The notes beneath the pieces are model-generated. The model was not told where the DNA came from. It ran no database searches and saw nothing but the letters and a program-made list of their open reading frames with translations. Position numbers and translations under genes: made by a program. From Panagrolaimus kolymaensis (lineage: Eukaryota > Nematoda > Chromadorea > Rhabditida > Panagrolaimidae), in NCBI GenBank assembly GCA_028622995.1, contig JAJQJQ010000049.1, forward strand, positions 1,178,001-1,242,000: 64,000 nt of DNA, written 5' to 3'. Shown here piece by piece: positions 48,256 to 58,140 of the stretch. Each line of letters opens with the position of its first letter. Position 1 is the stretch's first letter.

Positions 48256-49620
48256 ATGCTTAATCGTGTATCAATAACTCAACTTCGTTCAATTACCGCT
48301 CAAGCTAAAAATGCTACATGTGGAAGCAGTGGAAATGCATCAACTAAATATATGGAACGTGAATCTCGCTATGGTGCACACAATTATAAACCTGTTCCAA
48401 TTGTGATTGATAAAGCAAAAGGTGTACATGTATGGGATGTTGATGGTAAACAATATTATGATTTTCTATCACCTTATTCTGCAGTCAATCAAGGTCATTG
48501 TCATCCACGATTAATTAAAGTTATGCAAGATCAAGCTCAACGTGTTACTCTTACATCTCGTGCATTTTATAATTCTGTTTTGGGTGAATATGAAGAATTT
48601 ATGCATAAAATGTTTGGATATGATAAACTCTTACCAATGAATACTGGTAAGTCCTTTAATCCATTTTTTGATAATGCTAGCTATCTGCTTACAATATCCT
48701 TTAACTAAATATGAATATTTTTCAGGTGTTGAAGCATCCGAAACCGCTGTAAAACTTGCTCGTCGTTGGGCTTATGATGTCAAAGGTGTACCAAAGAATG
48801 AAGCCAAAGTTGTTTTTGCTAAAGGAAATTTTTGGGGTCGTTCTATTGCTGCCATTTCTGATAGTGATGATTCTGATAGTTATGGAGGTTATGGTCCTTT
48901 CGTTCCTGGCTTTGAATTAATTCCATATAATGATCTTCAAGCTCTTTAAGTAAGTTTCATTGTTTCTGTAAATGTGTTATAAAAGAATCGTTTAAATTTT
49001 CAGAAAGCAATCTCCGATCCAAAAACTGCTGCATTCATGGTTGAACCAATTCTAGGCCAAGCTGGAATCATGATACCATCTCCAGGATATTTACAAAAAG
49101 TTCGAGAACTTTGCACCAAATATAACGTTTTTTTCATTGCTGATGAAGTTCAAACTGGCCTTGGACGTACTGGAAAACTTTTATGCGTTCATCTTGATCA
49201 AGTTCGCTCTGATATCGTTTGTCTTGGTAAAGCTCTCTCTCTGGTGGTATGTATCCTGTTTCTGTTGTATTAGCTGATGATCAAGTTTTGTTAACCATTA
49301 AACCTGGACAAACATGGTTCATCATATGGTGGAAATCCATTAGCATGTAAAATAGCTATGGAAGCTGTTCAAATTTTAGTTGATGAAAAATTCCCTGAAA
49401 ATGCTGAAAAACAAGGTGAAAGACTTATGTCCAAACTCAAAACATTACCAAAAGAAATTGTTAAAACAACTCGTGGACGTGGTCTTCTTTGTGCTATGGT
49501 TATTAATCCTAGTATGTTTAATTTCCATATTGTTGCATTCCAAACTAACCTTCCCTCCTTTTTTTAGAATTTGTCTATGAGAATATGGCTTTGTGAAAGC
49601 TCGAACTAAGTTTTATTGCT
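48256..49620 (+). pseudogene. Ornithine aminotransferase pseudogene
   Basis: Exon remains: 48256-48646, 48726-48949, 49004-49511, 49568 onward. The product is the PLP enzyme of ornithine/proline metabolism in mitochondria, with a mitochondrial-type leader ([12 protein letters not shown]). Recognisable blocks: [59 protein letters not shown], the PLP-contact [11 protein letters not shown] and the Schiff-base region [10 protein letters not shown]. Damage: a TAA replaces the codon before the second donor (48947-48949); two extra bases follow GKALS in a CT run near 49240; an extra A lies near 49310 that would restore the frame; and the C-terminal ~70 residues have dissolved just before prefoldin. 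Splice sites are otherwise good. The mixture of a substitution and several indels argues for true decay rather than sequencing error. Confidence 0.8.
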
Positions 49621-49643: not shown

Positions 49644-50153
49644 ATGACAACACGTGAAATAAAGCTTGAAGATCTACCAAAGGTACCACCGCAGCAACTT
49701 TCTGCATTGATTCAACAATTTGAAGGTGAAATCATATTTTTTCAACAATCTTTAGCTGAATTGAAGTCTGTCGTCACAACATTCAAAAAATCTCAAGATG
49801 CTGTTAATGATATGGCTGAAATGGGTGAAAATAAAGAATGCCTTGTTCCTTTAACTGATACAATATATGTTAGTAGTCGAACTGGAACATGTGAAAAGTT
49901 TCTGATAGATATTGGTACTGGTTATTATGCTGAAATGACACCTGAAGAAGCAAACATGATGTTTTCACGCAAACGTGAATTTGTTGAAAATCAAATCAAA
50001 CAAATTGAAGGAAATCTTTTACCCAATAAGAAAATGGCTCTCGAACTTACTTCTCAAGCATTACAAAAGAAAATTGCTGAAGCTCAAGCTGCTGCAGGTG
50101 GTGGTGGATCAAATCAAGCTATAGCTGCTACTGGTGGTGGTGGTTCAAAGTAA
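49644..50153 (+). CDS. pfd-5: Prefoldin subunit 5
   Basis: A single-exon alpha-type prefoldin subunit, 169 aa. Prefoldin is a hexameric cytosolic chaperone that hands actin and tubulin to the CCT chaperonin. An N-terminal helix (QQLSALIQQFEGEIIFFQQSLAEL) is followed by the beta hairpins with the family signature LVPLTDTIYV and FLIDIGTGYYAEMTPEEA, then the C-terminal helix (FVENQIKQIEGNL). The core is complete and similar in length to human PFDN5 (154 aa). It has an added low-complexity tail (AAAGGGGSNQA...GGGGSK). The lack of introns is unusual among its neighbours. The start is fixed by the acceptor one base upstream. AATAAA at 50307 is a good polyadenylation signal. Confidence 0.92.
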   Translation: MTTREIKLEDLPKVPPQQLSALIQQFEGEIIFFQQSLAELKSVVTTFKKSQDAVNDMAEMGENKECLVPLTDTIYVSSRTGTCEKFLIDIGTGYYAEMTPEEANMMFSRKREFVENQIKQIEGNLLPNKKMALELTSQALQKKIAEAQAAAGGGGSNQAIAATGGGGSK

Positions 50154-50312: not shown

Positions 50313-50662
50313 GAGTTTCAAGCTTTGTGTGTTTTTTTTTTGGTAGAGATAGCATTTCATTGGAAGAGAGGGAGTGTTAAAGTAACATTTACTATGTTTG
50401 CATATGTTGGAGTTGGTTGATAATTGAGTCGATGAAGCAGTCGTAAAGGTTGCAACTACAGTCTAATGATGGCATGATGTTAGCCAATATTGTAAGCCCA
50501 TGTTTTTGATCCCCTCTTCTATCCTTTCTTCTTTTTTTTTTCACATTTTTTGCAACTTTTTATGTTGGGAAGGATGGGCTTTAGCATGAAGCTTTTTCTT
50601 TTTATCGAAAATATTGTATTATTTTAAAAGTAAAAAACTTCTTTCAACCGCGATTGCCTTAT

Positions 50663-51041
50663 TGTGCGACTTGATCGATTAAAAAGAGATCAAATCGCAA
50701 GATTATGATTTGATGCAAGCCCTTTGCTTGCATTTTCTTTCTTTTGTATTTTTATCTTTGCACACATAGCTTGCTTCCATTTTCTCTCTCTCTAAAATGA
50801 TTTCATTTTTATTGCTTTAAATTGTATTTTATAACGAGTTTTATAATTTGATAACTGCGTGCCATAATCTTTTTCTGTTTAATTACCCAAAGTTTGAGGG
50901 GTCAATAAAGTATATCATTTGCTCCTCGTTTATTTCCAACAGCTGATTAAAGCTGGCCATCCGAAACCACCAATCATACCACAACTTATTATATTGGAAT
51001 TACCACAATTAAACCACAACACCTAAATTATTCCATTATTT
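50663..51041 (+). repeat. 5' LTR (379 bp)
   Basis: It begins TGTGCGAC and holds two successive hairpins near its 5' end (TGCGACTTGATC with GATCAAATCGCA at 50665-50699; ATGCAAG with CTTGCAT at 50713-50733), a TTATAA region near 50.83 kb and AATAAA at 50904-50909, the usual signals for transcription and RNA 3' end formation. It ends in TTATTT rather than a canonical CA. Confidence 0.93.
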
Positions 51042-51063
51042 ACATGGGGGATACACCACGAAG
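51042..51063 (+). other. Primer-binding-site-like sequence
   Basis: ACA then TGGGGGATACACCACGAAG directly follows the LTR. TGG matches the CCA end of a tRNA. The tRNA itself was not identified. The Gag ATG follows without a gap, so there is practically no leader beyond this site. Confidence 0.55.
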
Positions 51064-54000
51064 ATGGCAGCAATTAATCGTCTTAAAGCTGAATTGGATA
51101 AAGTTATTGAAAGATTGAGCAAACATGGAATCGAAGCTAATGGCAGAACGCCACCGATTAAACCCAGTGAATTTAGTACATTTGTTGATACATTAAACGC
51201 TGATATATCATATTTGGAAGCTGCACTGGGTGATATGAAGGAAGCGACCAAAAAAATCGATGATTTTGCAGAAAGAAATTATAATAACCCCGATGCTGTT
51301 GCCAAAGTTGACGCTTTAGCATTGGATGCATTGGATGGTTCAAAGAAACCTGGTTATATTTCAATTACTGATAATGCTAAAAAAGTATTAATCAACGTAA
51401 AAATAAACAAAGATTTATTCATGTCAAAAACCCCTTCGATTATTACAAACTCAATCTCTTCAACTCCTCCACCAGCACAAATTGTTATGCCTGAATTTGA
51501 TTATTCAATCTTAAATACTCAAAATCAGACTCGATTTTCTGGTGACAAACGCAAGTACGATTATTTTTGGCGAAGATTTAAACCTATCCATGATAGTGTA
51601 AAGAAAACTGATGCTGATAAACTTAATCTACTCATTGGATTACTTGATGGTGAACCTAAAGAACTTGTTGAAAAGTATGACATAATTGATAAAAATTATA
51701 CTATTGTAATCGACAAACTAAAATCCAAATATGGAAAATCATCCGAGGTTATCCAATTATTGCATGAAGATTTTGATACCTTAAAACTTCAAAATGAAAA
51801 TGTTAAAAACGTTAAAGATGCTGAAACTGTTTTTAATAAAGCTGAAATTATTTTGAATCAACTTGAAAATCATGGTGAAGATTTATCCCATTCTTCAGTT
51901 AAAATGCATTGGTTAAAGAAAATTCCAACATGGTTAAAAAAGGATTTATTCCTAAAGCATCCGGATGGTACTTTGCAGCAATGGAGAACGGAAGCAGAAA
52001 AAATTCTTTCTGTCGAAGTTAGATTGATCAGCAAAAATGATAATGACGAATCATCATCAACGATTGTGAATGCTGTAAAGACCCAAAAGAAGCGGAAGAA
52101 AAAGAATGCATGGGAAAAAGTTCTTAGTGTAAAAAATGACGCTGTCAAGAACGACAAGCCTAAAAAATGCAAGCTTTGCTCTGGTGCACATTTTAGTTCA
52201 CGGTGCAATAAATATCCTACTGTAAAAGAAAGGCTCAAAGTTTGCAACGATGAACGTTTATGCAAAAAATGCTTGAATAATAATCATGAAACCCAAGATT
52301 GTAAATGGAACAACAATTGTTTTATTTGCAAAGAAGTAAATATTCATCATACTGCATTATGCTCAAAAATTGATAATAAAAATGGCAAAACTCAAGTTAA
52401 TGTTGCTGTTGTTGAAAAGGAATCATCAGATGAAAGTGAATCTGAAACTGAAGTATCAGCTCTTACTGCTGCAACCAATAAAACCGAAGCAGTTATTTTG
52501 CCTCTTGCTGAAATAAATGTATCACACCCAAAATTGGATTCTTACGAGAAAGTTCCCGCTTTATTGGATTCTGCATCTCATTTATCTTATATTTTCAATC
52601 AATATGCTCAAGATTTAAATCTTCCTATTATTGCTCGTGAAAAATTGAAGATTGAAACATTTAATAATGATGTGCCACAATTTAAAAATGTCAATGTTTA
52701 TTCGCTTGATATGAAATATAAACATGGTCATGTTGAAACTTTATTCCTTCGTGGTGTCGATAAAATTACCAGCAAGCTTACTATGGCTAAAATGAAAAAT
52801 AATATTCTTCAATTTACCGACGTTTTGCCAAAACTCCTTATTGGAGGAGATTATTTTTGGAGCTTGGTTAAAGGGAAAAGCAAAAAATTACCATCAGGCT
52901 TATATTTATCTGATACCCAAATAGGTGATATTATTAGTGGAAAATGCTATGCTAATAATCACCTCAAAAATGTTCATACTTTAACCGCCAAGATTTCAGT
53001 TGTTGAAAGAAAAATTGTTCCTGATGCTGAATTAAATCAGCAAAATGTTAAAATTCGTGATAAAATTGTTGACTCAAATGTTTGCTCAACTAAAAAATTA
53101 ATTTTAAATTCCATCAGCGAATATGATCCACCATGGCCTCTAAAAAATGATATTTGTTGGCCAAAAGAAGTTATTACTCCTGCAGAAATAAAATTGCATC
53201 ATGAGCTTGTTAATCATATCAATGTTAATAAACACATTGATGTTGATCAAGAAAAAACAGCCCATTTGAATGTGATTCCCTGCGAGGAAAAACCAAAGGA
53301 CGACGTTAACTTTATTCACGTCTTTGTACCCGATAATAGCACATGGATTTTTTATATTCTTGTTGTTATATTTTATTTTATTACTATTTTTATTAATGGT
53401 ATTGCTAACATCGTATCTAAAGTTAAAAATATTATTGATTCGTGCTCCTTTAATTCAATTCCTCCTGGTTTAACTGCTGCTGTAAATATTATTGCTAAAA
53501 CAGCTGTTGAAAAAACTAAATCATCGAATTTCAAATCTTCCAACTTGATCAAAACTTTATTTAGTTTGGTTTTTTGTTTCATTCTTTTTGTGAATGCCAA
53601 CGCAAACTTATGCAACTCAAGCACTGAAGGCTTAAATGTTGTTTATGCTGAAACTTGCGTTTCTAATGGCATTGCCGTATTTGAAAAGCCTGATAATACT
53701 TTCTGTTATGAATATATAAATTGCAAAGATTCTCATCTTCATTTTAAACCAAACTCCGACGATTTATGTGGAGAATTATGCTCATGTCCAGATTGGAGCG
53801 ATGATTGCTCATTTCATTCTTCAAATATCACAGATGCTGAAAAATATGAATATTTGAAGCTTATTGAAGATGAAGCACCCCATTCTGATGATTACTTAAT
53901 TTATATCATCCAATTACCTGATAATACCGACCATGTAATCCGACAACTTACTTTGCTTAAAGAAGATGTTGTCGATGAAGTTAAATGTTTTGGTGATGGA

Positions 54001-56181
54001 AATATTGTAACCGGTGGCGAATTATATTGCCAAAAATTTCAATGTAGTCCTGATGCTACTAAATTTTGCTTATTTCCACATCATGAAATGGTTTATGCTA
54101 TTACTCAACATGGGAAAATTCCTATCATTGCTTGGAATTCTGTTGAAAAGAAGCCAGTAGCTAAACCAAAGTCGAAGGTAATATTAAATGTTACTTGCCA
54201 CGATGGTAAATTAATTGTTGGTAACACTGAAAATATTAGAAAAATTCAAATTAAAGCCATCAATAATTATTGGATCGTTGAACCAAATTCAACCGAAACA
54301 ATTATGTTTCTCCCAACGACTTTAATCATGGCACCACGAATGCTTGAAGTAACTGCATGGAATTTTGACGAAGTTTCAAATAAAACTGAAGTCAAGTGCA
54401 AAGAAGTTGATATTTGTCAACGATTAATTTACTGTTGGTTTTGCATCGATGAACTAATTAATCCTCAATGTCGACCAGTCAAATCCTTATTATTACTTAG
54501 CTGCATCATTAGTTGGAGTTATATTATTTTCCATAAAATTTATAAAAGATGTTGCAGCCGGCGTCAAAGAAGATATTCTTATGCCCTTATTGATAATCCT
54601 GGTGCTGGTCGAAATTTATTTAATTTCATGCGAAGAAGAGATTCGAATGAAGGTGGTCTTATTCGATTTAGACGACTTTCACGCCATATTTTTTATACAC
54701 CAACAATTATTTGTATTTTATGCATCGTTATTCCCGCTGTTGCTGCTGGTAACGATGACCTTATGCTCTCTGCTTCTGCTGAAGAATGCACTGAAGATGC
54801 ACATGGATGGGTTAATTGTAAAATTATGCAAGTTACCCAACTCACTGCAAGCACCACCAGAACTTCTAAATTGCTTATGAACTATAAAGGCAGACCATTA
54901 GGCACGATCCATATTCAACCCCAACTTCGTGCTATTTGCCAAAAATATACTCATCATTTTACAAGAATTGTTTCTGTAAAAACTGCTTCAGTAAAAATAT
55001 GCCGGCTTCGTGATATGTGTACCGGTTATGAATGTTCAGAATCCAATGAACAAACTCGTGTTCCAGCTTTTGGAAAAGCAAATTTTCTTCCAGGCAACAC
55101 AGTTTGTGTCGAATTTTGTGGATCATGGTCTTGTTATTGTTTTTGGGGCGGTGCAGCTTGCCTTTATTATCGAAATTTTGCTACTCCAATTGATGAAAGA
55201 AATTTCGAAGTATTCTCTTGCGCTGAATGGCATATTGCCGCTGTTATTAATGTTACCATTACAACCCAAAACTCCAGATCAACTCGAATGTTAAGCCTAA
55301 ATGAAGGTCATTCTGCTGAATTTTCAAAAGTAAAAATTGCATTGTTGGATTCAAATGTTGAAACTTCAATGCCCTCTGTTGATCAATATTTTATTTCATC
55401 TGGTAAAACTGTTGCTCTTCTAAATGAAGTTGGCAAAAAAGCAGCTGAAATATTAAAATGTGAAGATGAAGCTGACTCTGAATCCCTTCAAAATTGCACA
55501 TTATTACAAGATGCATGCAGGTGTTATCCAGCAGATAACACCGTATCTTGCTCTTGCCTCGAAAATGGATATTTGCTTAAAGCCATCAACAAAAACTCAT
55601 TGCCCATAAACTTTCAAGGCAAATGGCTTGAAGCATCGGAAGATCATAGAAGTGTAATAGCTCAACTATCAGCAAACCCTAGACTTCAAGTATCCGTTCA
55701 AGGGTTAACACTAAAAAGCGTGATTAACCAAAATGCATGTAAAGCAGTCGTCCACAAGCTTACTGGATGTTCACGATGCCCTGAAGGTGCTGTAGCTGAA
55801 ATTACATGCACGACTGATTTTGGAGATGCTGAAGCCCATGTTATTTGTGATGATCAAATTGCATTTCCATTAAAATGCACCAAACATGGATATATGCAGG
55901 AAGTAAATTTATTTTTTGATCAAGTTAATGTCAACTTAAATTGTTCACTTGAATGTCCTGCAAACTCAGAAAAAATTACAATTTCTGCGATTCTCCGTCA
56001 ATCAAAAACCCCAAATTTATGGTCAACTCGTGAAGCATCTGATAAAAAGGAAAATGAATCCGTATTTATTCCTATTGTACATGCCTTCACTGATTTCTTC
56101 AAGCAATCTTACATGATTATGGTGGTGACACTTATTGTAGCGGCTATCATAGCATTGGTGATCCTAAAAATTCTGATTTGA
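51064..56181 (+). CDS. Gag-retropepsin-envelope polyprotein of the LTR element
   Basis: 1705 aa with no stops. Residues 142 to about 315: BEL/Pao Gag (DUF1759-like: FSGDKRKYDYFWRRF, LLDGEPKELVEKY). Three Cys-His knuckles at 369-381, 400-413 and 419-433 for RNA packaging. A retropepsin-like domain (DUF1758 type) has active-site LLDSASH at 500-506 (Ala where Gly is usual) and LLIGGDYFW at about 591. About 100 linker residues then lead straight into the glycoprotein part: hydrophobic segment 761-785, signal-like helix about 828-850, a Cys-rich ectodomain, a membrane helix about 1140-1158 with a basic patch, a second signal-like helix about 1212-1230, then a Gc-like ectodomain with a Cys/aromatic loop at 1348-1369 (FCGSWSCYCFWGG) resembling bunyaviral class II fusion loops, and a C-terminal anchor about 1682-1705. 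No YxDD reverse-transcriptase motif, RNase H or integrase zinc/DDE region is present. Confidence 0.9.
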   Translation: MAAINRLKAELDKVIERLSKHGIEANGRTPPIKPSEFSTFVDTLNADISYLEAALGDMKEATKKIDDFAERNYNNPDAVAKVDALALDALDGSKKPGYISITDNAKKVLINVKINKDLFMSKTPSIITNSISSTPPPAQIVMPEFDYSILNTQNQTRFSGDKRKYDYFWRRFKPIHDSVKKTDADKLNLLIGLLDGEPKELVEKYDIIDKNYTIVIDKLKSKYGKSSEVIQLLHEDFDTLKLQNENVKNVKDAETVFNKAEIILNQLENHGEDLSHSSVKMHWLKKIPTWLKKDLFLKHPDGTLQQWRTEAEKILSVEVRLISKNDNDESSSTIVNAVKTQKKRKKKNAWEKVLSVKNDAVKNDKPKKCKLCSGAHFSSRCNKYPTVKERLKVCNDERLCKKCLNNNHETQDCKWNNNCFICKEVNIHHTALCSKIDNKNGKTQVNVAVVEKESSDESESETEVSALTAATNKTEAVILPLAEINVSHPKLDSYEKVPALLDSASHLSYIFNQYAQDLNLPIIAREKLKIETFNNDVPQFKNVNVYSLDMKYKHGHVETLFLRGVDKITSKLTMAKMKNNILQFTDVLPKLLIGGDYFWSLVKGKSKKLPSGLYLSDTQIGDIISGKCYANNHLKNVHTLTAKISVVERKIVPDAELNQQNVKIRDKIVDSNVCSTKKLILNSISEYDPPWPLKNDICWPKEVITPAEIKLHHELVNHINVNKHIDVDQEKTAHLNVIPCEEKPKDDVNFIHVFVPDNSTWIFYILVVIFYFITIFINGIANIVSKVKNIIDSCSFNSIPPGLTAAVNIIAKTAVEKTKSSNFKSSNLIKTLFSLVFCFILFVNANANLCNSSTEGLNVVYAETCVSNGIAVFEKPDNTFCYEYINCKDSHLHFKPNSDDLCGELCSCPDWSDDCSFHSSNITDAEKYEYLKLIEDEAPHSDDYLIYIIQLPDNTDHVIRQLTLLKEDVVDEVKCFGDGNIVTGGELYCQKFQCSPDATKFCLFPHHEMVYAITQHGKIPIIAWNSVEKKPVAKPKSKVILNVTCHDGKLIVGNTENIRKIQIKAINNYWIVEPNSTETIMFLPTTLIMAPRMLEVTAWNFDEVSNKTEVKCKEVDICQRLIYCWFCIDELINPQCRPVKSLLLLSCIISWSYIIFHKIYKRCCSRRQRRYSYALIDNPGAGRNLFNFMRRRDSNEGGLIRFRRLSRHIFYTPTIICILCIVIPAVAAGNDDLMLSASAEECTEDAHGWVNCKIMQVTQLTASTTRTSKLLMNYKGRPLGTIHIQPQLRAICQKYTHHFTRIVSVKTASVKICRLRDMCTGYECSESNEQTRVPAFGKANFLPGNTVCVEFCGSWSCYCFWGGAACLYYRNFATPIDERNFEVFSCAEWHIAAVINVTITTQNSRSTRMLSLNEGHSAEFSKVKIALLDSNVETSMPSVDQYFISSGKTVALLNEVGKKAAEILKCEDEADSESLQNCTLLQDACRCYPADNTVSCSCLENGYLLKAINKNSLPINFQGKWLEASEDHRSVIAQLSANPRLQVSVQGLTLKSVINQNACKAVVHKLTGCSRCPEGAVAEITCTTDFGDAEAHVICDDQIAFPLKCTKHGYMQEVNLFFDQVNVNLNCSLECPANSEKITISAILRQSKTPNLWSTREASDKKENESVFIPIVHAFTDFFKQSYMIMVVTLIVAAIIALVILKILI

Positions 56182-56339
56182 AATGATCCAGCTTCAATAA
56201 ATAAAAATTATTTTGGGGAGGGTAAAATAGTATTAAAAATTGTTAAGTAAATTTTAAATAATAATTTAGTCTAATTGTAAAGTAATTAATAATTGTCAGA
56301 ATAATTAATTTTATTTTTGTTTAATTTTACTTTTGGGAG
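56182..56339 (+). other. Tail of the element with polypurine tract
   Basis: TTGGGGAGGG near 56212-56222 and GGGAG directly before the 3' LTR are the only purine-rich runs; either could prime plus-strand synthesis. No coding sequence is present. Confidence 0.45.
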
Positions 56340-56718
56340 TGTGCGACTTGATCGATTAAAAAGAGATCAAATCGCAAGATTATGATTTGATGCAAGCCCT
56401 TTGCTTGCATTTTCTTTCTTTTGTATTTTTATCTTTGCACACATAGCTTGCTTCCATTTTCTCTCTCTCTAAAATGATTTCATTTTTATTGCTTTAAATT
56501 GTATTTTATAACGAGTTTTATAATTTGATAACTGCGTGCCATAATCTTTTTCTGTTTAATTACCCAAAGTTTGAGGGGTCAATAAAGTATATCATTTGCT
56601 CCTCGTTTATTTCCAACAGCTGATTAAAGCTGGCCATCCGAAACCACCAATCATACCACAACTTATTATATTGGAATTACCACAATTAAACCACAACACC
56701 TAAATTATTCCATTATTT
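56340..56718 (+). repeat. 3' LTR (379 bp)
   Basis: Read against the 5' LTR with no difference seen over the full length. It carries the same hairpins and an AATAAA about 242 bp from its start. Confidence 0.93.
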
Positions 56719-58140
56719 CTTACACTTATCTTACATCAAAAAATTTTGTGTATACAAAAAAAGATTAAAAGAAGAAGAAGCTTGCTTTTAAATGGGGAGG
56801 GTTGGTTGTTATTTTTAGTTTTATGCGAGTTTCGTAATATTTTTTAGAAGTTCGAATTTTGTTTGTCGCATTATGATTCTTTTATTTTTGTCTATTAAAT
56901 TCTGTTTAGCAACTAAAATCTTAAAAAAATAATTGATTCTTGCCTATTACTACCAAAAATCTTGTTCTCAAACAAGAAAGAAGAATTTCGATAACGATCA
57001 TTCATTCACGTGCGATCTTTTGAACTCTCAAAATTTATTCTTCTTTACTTTTTTTATGTATTTTTTTGTTTTTGTTAATTCCCTTTCCTGAATTTTTGCC
57101 TTCTTTAAATTTGGATTAGGGTTAACCTCTATAAAAGTTGTTTGTTACGATGACGTATGTTCATCATTACCACCACCCATTAATAATCTCTTAAATAACC
57201 ACCTTTTGTCGTCTTTTTAAAGCTTATTTCAAAATATCATTATTTTTCTTTTCTTTTTTATTTTTGGTCGTCTCCATCTTTTTATTTTACGTGAGTGATT
57301 GAATCACTTCTAAATTGCCTTTAACGATGATCGACCTGAATGTACCTCAACTTTTGTTTTCATTTCCTTCTCCTATTTTTTTACCTTCTCTTTTTTCTAT
57401 TTTTTTTTATGATGACGAGTAAAAACAATTGAATGCCCGCCCATCGCTGTTGTTTTGTTCTTAGTGTTAATGTCTCTTGTAACTTTTCTTTCTTTTAATA
57501 TTTTTATTATTCATTCCCTTTGGCTCTCAATTGTTATGCTGCTTCTTTTTTTGTATTGTTTGAGAGAGTCAAAGTTAAAGGCAGGCAAGAAGAATAAGAG
57601 TAGTAGCAGCTAATGCACGCGAAAACAACACAAAAAAAAAGAAGAAATAAAATATGACGAGATATGAAAACAATTTTTGGTTCATTTTTTTGCTGCTGTT
57701 TGCTTGCTTATTTTAATTTAAATTTTTTTTACAAAAAGCTTTAATGTCTCCATTTTTTATTGTTTGTTGTTTTTGATGGTGCTAATTATTTTGATATCAA
57801 TGGCTTTTTTGATAATTTGTTTTTGTTGCAATTTTTTGTGGAAAAACAATTGATTTTTACTTTCATTTTCAAAATGATTTTTGCTTTAAATTAATGACAA
57901 ATTTTGTGGATTTATTTCTTTCAAACTTTTAAGTCCATTCCAAAAATAGTCCACATTTTTGATCACTAACCCTTGTATTCATGTTGCACAATAATGCAAA
58001 ATCTTATACTTAACTTTTGTTTGCTTTCTAGAGACACCTTCTCTACAAATGCCACTCTGGCCATTCTTCCAAGGGAACCTGTCAAGGAATGGTGGTTTAT
58101 TCGGTTCAAAAAAATTCCTCAAATCTCTTCTCTTTTTTCT
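56719..58140. other. Intergenic, AT-rich
   Basis: T-rich sequence with no supported exons. A short frame near 58.02-58.13 kb (ATLAILPREPVKEWW) looks unusually protein-like but is isolated, and may belong to the retroelement relic that follows. Confidence 0.45.

What the first reader, a model, noticed from the sequence alone, without database searches (positions are those of the whole stretch)
50663..56718. Young LTR element encoding Gag-PR-Env with no Pol
One intact 1705-codon frame goes from BEL/Pao Gag and retropepsin straight into a glycoprotein precursor. The gap between the protease motif (~600) and the first envelope hydrophobic segment (~761) is too small for reverse transcriptase, RNase H and integrase (normally >1000 aa), yet the LTRs look identical. 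So a Pol-less, envelope-keeping genome was mobilised recently, presumably with Pol supplied in trans. Non-autonomous Gag-only elements are known; one that keeps envelope fused in frame to Gag is, as far as I know, not described.
Basis: partly seen in the sequence, partly recalled or inferred. Interest (0 to 1): 0.93.

Follow-up and report, generated by a model that had tools for sequence, protein, structure and literature searches.

The report
Satellite-like nematode retroelement lacking its polymerase
This is a recently inserted virus-like retroelement, probably of a roundworm, that kept its capsid, protease and envelope genes but lost the enzymes that copy and insert it, so it most likely moved with enzymes borrowed from relatives; similar hitchhikers are known in mammals, so it is a variant of a known kind.

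Summary
At 50663-56724 lies a BEL/Pao (belpaovirus) insertion with a 5-bp target duplication, LTRs without substitutions (one 3-bp gap) and an intact 1705-codon Gag-protease-Env frame with no room for RT, RNase H and integrase. Env is of the Atlas-virus type. Three corrections. Env in frame with Gag is the normal layout of such nematode elements (Atlas: one 2828-aa Gag-Pol-Env); only the missing Pol is unusual. A Pol trace remains: the RNase H-integrase linker. The Pol-less join is not private: one diverged, truncated locus (C43, 81% identical around the protease) has it too, so it probably predates this insertion. The only other two-LTR relative found (C23) matches the window's LTR, Gag start and Env at 93-98% but has a different centre (RNase H tail, integrase; no protease or RT). 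So the window element is a mosaic: young flanks around an older Pol-less centre, the pattern reported for bovine ERVK D-type and koala RecKoRV. No Pol-complete partner with these LTRs was found. Recent mobilisation with Pol in trans is the best reading, not proven: this exact structure is a single copy. In passing: the LTRs carry the host spliced-leader (SL1) sequence.

The parts
50658..50662 (.). 5' copy of target-site duplication CTTAT
50663..51044 (+). 5' LTR (382 bp, TG...CA; 3 bp shorter near its end than the 3' LTR)
50877..50898 (+). SL1-like sequence (one extra A) shortly upstream of AATAAA in the 5' LTR
51045..51062 (+). candidate primer-binding site (begins TGG directly after the LTR); tRNA not identified
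   Evidence: sequence; inference
51064..56181 (+). single intact Gag-PR-Env frame, 1705 aa
51535..51927 (+). DUF1759, Gag (the name Gag is recalled)
52537..52947 (+). retropepsin-like protease, DUF1758
53104..53427 (+). trace of Pol: RNase H-integrase linker and pre-integrase helix, shared with C43
   Evidence: 0 of 1000 shuffles reach the score against C14, C23 and C43 each; stretches chosen by eye
53347..53403 (+). hydrophobic segment within the Pol trace (aa 762-780)
53536..53592 (+). signal-peptide-like segment (aa 825-843) at the start of Env; about here close identity to C23 begins
54763..55677 (+). Phlebovirus_G2 (Gc) fusion glycoprotein; closest solved chain 7a4a
56122..56178 (+). C-terminal hydrophobic (transmembrane-like) segment of Env
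56335..56339 (+). short purine run (polypurine-tract candidate) before the 3' LTR
   Evidence: sequence; inference
56340..56724 (+). 3' LTR (385 bp), SL1-like sequence at 56554-56575
56725..56729 (.). 3' copy of target-site duplication CTTAT

Best explanation
A non-autonomous, recombinant belpaovirus (BEL/Pao element with a phlebovirus-like Env). Its outer parts (LTRs, Gag start, Env) belong to a lineage also represented by the C23 copy; its centre (protease, Pol-deleted linker, probably the Gag end) belongs to an older Pol-less lineage also represented by C43. Shown: the mosaic pattern, the shared Pol-less join, the target duplication, the substitution-free LTRs, the intact frame. Inferred: its RNA was packaged in particles, copied and integrated by Pol supplied in trans by a Pol-containing BEL element, and the centre was swapped in by template switching between two co-packaged RNAs. 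Its own protein would supply Gag, protease and Env but no replication enzymes.
For: No Pol families and no room for them. Perfect 5-bp duplication, 0 LTR substitutions. C23: LTRs 379/379 identical, duplication ATTAT, LTR 96.6%, Gag start 93%, Env 96-98% identical to the window, but no protease or RT and a different centre. The window centre 51978-53573 has one other DNA match in the genome, C43, 81% over 569 bp (reciprocal search); C43 also runs from protease straight into the linker, and the linkers match with the protease excluded (score 105, best of 1000 shuffles 74). The window linker resembles the C23 counterpart only at 35% over 48 aa (E 0.02) while the flanks are 93-98% alike, so recombination is needed. 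dN/dS below 1: Gag 0.20, Env N 0.27, Gc 0.19 (window/C23), protease 0.22 (window/C43); upper bootstrap limits 0.36 to 0.61. Pol-containing BEL loci with long open frames, up to 2848 aa, exist as possible helpers.
Against: The exact structure is single-copy. No Pol-complete element with this LTR or with close Pol was found (best other integrase 43% aa among 66 matches), so the helper is unnamed and use of its enzymes across families is assumed. Low dN/dS may reflect intact ancestors rather than selection on the Pol-less form. C43 appears 5'-truncated, lacks most of Env, and its linker differs from the window's by several indels. Own-genome protein searches with three pieces did not complete. 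No expression data.
Confidence: 0.62

Rival explanations
1. One-off: Pol was lost during the single reverse-transcription event that made this insertion, or after it, from a full Gag-Pol-Env parent. No Pol-less RNA was ever mobilised.
For: Single copy of the exact structure. C23 shows that a different internal loss also occurred in a young copy. Such deletions are common in reverse transcription (recalled).
Against: C43 has the same protease-to-linker join at 81% identity around the protease, so the loss looks older. The centre differs from the C23 centre too much for a plain deletion from a C23-like parent.
Confidence: 0.2
2. Host-used gene: the frame is kept intact because the host uses the Gag-protease-Env protein or its fusogen.
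For: Intact 1705-codon frame; low dN/dS.
Against: Substitution-free LTRs and an intact target duplication leave little time; Env of the C23 relative is interrupted by a 401-bp replacement. No orthologue was sought.
Confidence: 0.08
3. Assembly artefact: a collapsed or misjoined Pol region.
For: Reads were not available here.
Against: Continuous open frame, matched LTR ends and duplication, and a second locus with the same join.
Confidence: 0.05

Closest known systems
Atlas virus (Ancylostoma ceylanicum; Belpaoviridae), PMC9094657
   Same: Single polyprotein frame with Gag first and phlebovirus-like Gn-Gc last; identical LTRs reported there too (abstract and section 6 read). The Gc piece here matches solved chain 7a4a at 4.8e-38; that 7a4a is Atlas Gc is recalled.
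   Different: Atlas has complete Pol (2828 aa, 9204 nt); the window element does not (1705 aa, 6.06 kb).
Bovine ERVK[2-1-LTR] D-type, koala RecKoRV and mouse ETn, PMC10924933
   Same: Central segment of a competent element swapped for an old piece of retroelement, flanks with LTR and parts of gag and env (gag and pol for MusD/ETn) kept; complementation in trans (passages read).
   Different: Vertebrate elements with known competent partners; D-type elements lack functional genes; here Gag-PR-Env is one intact frame and no competent partner is known.
Friend spleen focus-forming virus
   Same: Replication-defective retrovirus in a complex with a competent one (start of the abstract of PMC9758943 in the listing); that it keeps env and needs a helper's Pol is recalled.
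   Different: Exogenous murine virus, not BEL/Pao (recalled).
C23 element of the same genome (L009)
   Same: LTR, Gag start and Env 93-98% alike; own LTRs 379/379 identical, 5-bp duplication.
   Different: RNase H tail and integrase instead of Gag end and protease; Gag frame shifted, Env interrupted.

Membership tests
Belpaoviridae (features from PMC8742986, read whole) | LTRs of 0.2-1.2 kb, genome 4.2-10 kb | tested here: met
   382 and 385 bp, 50663-56724 = 6.06 kb
Belpaoviridae | BEL/Pao-type Gag and protease (DUF1759 and DUF1758 as their markers: recalled) | tested here: met
   3.5e-16 and 4.2e-8
Belpaoviridae (PMC8742986) | Pol with RT, RNase H, integrase | tested here: not met
   no such family at E up to 1 and no room; only a linker trace. 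So: a belpaovirus-derived defective element, not an autonomous member
Belpaoviridae (PMC8742986) | PBS complementary to tRNA-Arg or tRNA-Gly | not tested
   candidate PBS at 51045; tRNA genes were not scanned
Nematode belpaoviruses with phlebovirus-like Env (Atlas type) | Gc-like fusogen at the C-terminus of one polyprotein | tested here: met
   Phlebovirus_G2 4.3e-55; 7a4a 4.8e-38
Trans-mobilised non-autonomous LTR element | lacks replication enzymes but keeps LTR ends and inserts with target duplication | tested here: met
Trans-mobilised non-autonomous LTR element | several copies with the same internal structure | tested here: inconclusive
   Pol-less join in 2 loci by DNA search, the second truncated and diverged; protein searches for more did not complete
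Trans-mobilised non-autonomous LTR element | autonomous partner with matching LTRs in the same genome | tested here: not met
   none seen among 40 LTR matches (a lower bound) with 12 regions fetched and compared; best other integrase 43%
Trans-mobilised non-autonomous LTR element | mobilisation in trans demonstrated | not testable with these tools
   needs experiment

The most novel reading that the evidence does not exclude
A long-lived Pol-less belpaovirus lineage (window and C43 share the join at 81% identity) that behaves as a satellite: it carries its own Gag, protease and fusogenic Env, borrows reverse transcriptase and integrase from other BEL families (integrases about 40% alike), and renews its LTRs and Env by recombination.
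Probability: 0.3. Interest if true: 0.78.

Novelty: new variant of a known kind. Interest (0 to 1): 0.52.

Why it matters
It extends to BEL/Pao elements, with a preserved fusion glycoprotein, the pattern of helper-dependent elements made by swapping the centre of a competent element, known from mammals. It gives a natural case to ask why an element without Pol keeps Gag, protease and Env, and whether BEL enzymes act across families.

Tried and rejected
Rejected: plain in-frame deletion from a C23-like parent (the linker differs too much); assembly artefact as main reading; the hydrophobic segment at about 761 as the first Env segment (it lies in the Pol trace). Results against or without help: Pfam gave no RT family for the Pol-containing control C14; protein search with the first 832 residues found nothing at E up to 0.001 (7994 candidates scored); Rfam gave 2 weak matches, both far below gathering score; an RT N-terminus was not recognisable in the window linker (88 of 1000 shuffles reach the score), and the C43 linker did not match C14 (107 of 1000) though it matched C23 (1 of 1000). 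The first dN/dS run had envN out of frame; the values used are. L021 and L022 were fetched and not analysed. Of the 40 LTR matches, 12 regions were fetched and compared; matches such as C29, C53 and C785 are about 41-bp hits on the SL1 stretch.

The host is called a nematode by inference: 61 exact copies of the SL1 21-mer, 0 of the reversed control; that this is SL1 also stands in PMC3315495 (primer in a passage). That TG...CA ends and 5-bp duplications are BEL traits is recalled.

Full report
What is there. The window carries an LTR element at 50663-56724 with a single 1705-codon frame at 51064-56181. The repeat finder shows the LTR pair. Comparing with the C23 relative puts the LTR ends at 51044 and 56724; the LTRs then begin TG and end CA, measure 382 and 385 bp, show 0 substitutions and one 3-bp gap, and are flanked by CTTAT on both sides. 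It is a genuine insertion with young LTRs. Zero substitutions in about 380 bp sets only a loose age limit: at a rate of a few per billion sites per generation (recalled for C. elegans) about a million generations remain possible.

What it encodes. Four pieces were scanned separately against Pfam: DUF1759 (Gag), DUF1758 (protease), nothing in the third piece, Phlebovirus_G2 in the fourth; no RT, RNase H or integrase family at E up to 1. Controls from the same genome show other Pol families: Peptidase_A17, Integrase_H2C2, DUF5641 and a sub-cut-off rve in C14, H2C2 and DUF5641 in C23; no RT family was found in C14 either, so the absence of RT is argued from space (about 200 residues between protease and Env). 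The Gc piece matches 11 distinct PDB sequences at E up to 0.001, best 7a4a (4.8e-38), others named SFTSV or RVFV Gc and envelopment polyproteins. Atlas virus, a hookworm belpaovirus, encodes Gag-Pol-Env as one 2828-aa frame with the same kind of Env (PMC9094657, section 6 read), and this genome holds other BEL loci with open frames of 2796 aa and similar. So Env fused in frame with Gag is ordinary; the missing Pol is not.

The trace of Pol. Window residues 681-800 match the RNase H-end to integrase linker of C14 (score 57, best of 1000 shuffles 53) and of C23 (79, best 62) (stretches chosen by eye). Env proper starts with the signal-like segment near residue 825, where close identity to C23 sets in.

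Relatives in the genome. One search gave 40 matches to the LTR and leader (a lower bound by the tool's own words). Twelve regions were fetched and compared: all 12 hold LTR sequence; only C23 holds another element with two full LTRs; C107 holds a Gc fragment (96%) next to a split LTR, C56 a 95-bp leader piece, C66 an 81-bp Env end. C23 has LTRs 379/379 identical and a duplication ATTAT. Its Gag start is 93% and its Env 96-98% identical to the window, but between them it has an RNase H tail and integrase, and no Gag end, protease or RT; its Gag frame shifts at the junction and a 401-bp stretch stands in place of 92 bp of Env. Its integrase has no close match elsewhere: 66 matches, best other 43% aa. 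So I found no Pol-complete partner of this LTR family in the genome as assembled.

The centre. Window 51978-53573 has one other DNA match, C43 at 81% over 569 bp; searching back with C43 finds only itself and the window. C43 appears cut off inside Gag at its 5' side, runs from protease into a linker and a hydrophobic segment, and then stops; an LTR-like stretch with the SL1-like sequence begins about 370 bp further on. The two proteins run in parallel through the place where RT should be, and with the protease left out the linkers still match (105 against a best of 74 in 1000 shuffles). Both thus probably go back to one Pol-less ancestor; two losses at nearly the same place are the less likely alternative.

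Mosaic. The window and C23 are 93-98% alike in the flanks but in the linker only 35% over 48 aa. Synonymous divergence also differs along the element: Gag start 0.167 (0.106-0.233), Env N part 0.090 (0.048-0.144), Gc 0.060 (0.035-0.088). Recombination between lineages explains this; the 5' breakpoint cannot be placed because C23 lacks that part. dN/dS is 0.20 (Gag), 0.27 (Env N), 0.19 (Gc) against C23 and 0.22 (protease) against C43: proteins under constraint for most of their history, though not necessarily since Pol was lost.

How it works, most likely. Its RNA makes Gag, protease and Env; Pol comes from another BEL element in shared particles; template switching there made the mosaic. The parallel in print is close: bovine ERVK D-type, koala RecKoRV and mouse ETn share a swapped centre with conserved flanks and are complemented in trans (PMC10924933, passages read). 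What differs here is the intact Gag-PR-Env frame and the lack of a known competent partner.

Limits. Single copy of the exact structure; no reads, no expression; own-genome protein searches with the Gag, protease-linker and Gc pieces did not complete. Literature searches (titles and abstract starts of 20 of 100, 20 of 27 and 15 of 5,525 papers) showed no Pol-less Env-keeping BEL/Pao element; the library lacks most subscription journals. In PMC3118150 only passages were seen (no occurrence of non-autonomous or deletion).

Noticed in passing
window 50877-50898 and 56554-56575; L009 1161 and 7707; L049 2104 (-): The LTRs carry the nematode spliced leader SL1: exact 21-mer in C23 and in seven further single LTR loci like the window's (C7, C28, C32, C41, C58, C61, C62), one extra A in the window, C43, C14 and others, shortly upstream of AATAAA in most. 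Genome-wide 61 exact copies, 0 of the reversed control; 15 of 61 lie within 10 kb of a BEL integrase match (36 of the 66 matches were used; 0.27% of the genome lies that near), 10 in LTR matches (one of them, C26, a 44-bp match only), 23 of 61 either. Apparently several BEL families share it. It may be a borrowed start element of SL RNA genes, or let trans-spliced RNA complete strand transfer. In C. elegans, Cer1's spliced mRNA gets SL1 by trans-splicing while its 8-kb RNA does not (PMC3315495, passages). Searches (4 papers; 15 of 30 shown; 0) showed no report of SL1 inside LTRs.
   Followed up: partly
L009 (G000:C23:1699500-1708500): A second young element of the family with a different internal loss (keeps integrase, lacks protease and RT), inserted beside or inside a gene that reads like NAA35 (recalled).
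   Followed up: yes
L004-L008, G000:C28, C61, C32, C7, C62: Five LTRs share nearly the same flanks (20 and 30 bp seen; one base differs in L004), so one solo LTR may have been multiplied with its surroundings.
   Followed up: no
window 48256-48708 and 49644-50153: Neighbouring upstream frames read like ornithine aminotransferase and prefoldin subunit 5 (recalled, no search made); the element lies about 500 bp downstream of the latter, same strand.
   Followed up: no
G000:C15, C21, C47, C142: BEL loci with open frames of 2796 aa and equal match scores; those of C15 and C21 are bracketed by two exact SL1 copies about 9.26 kb apart: apparently recent copies and possible helpers.
   Followed up: partly
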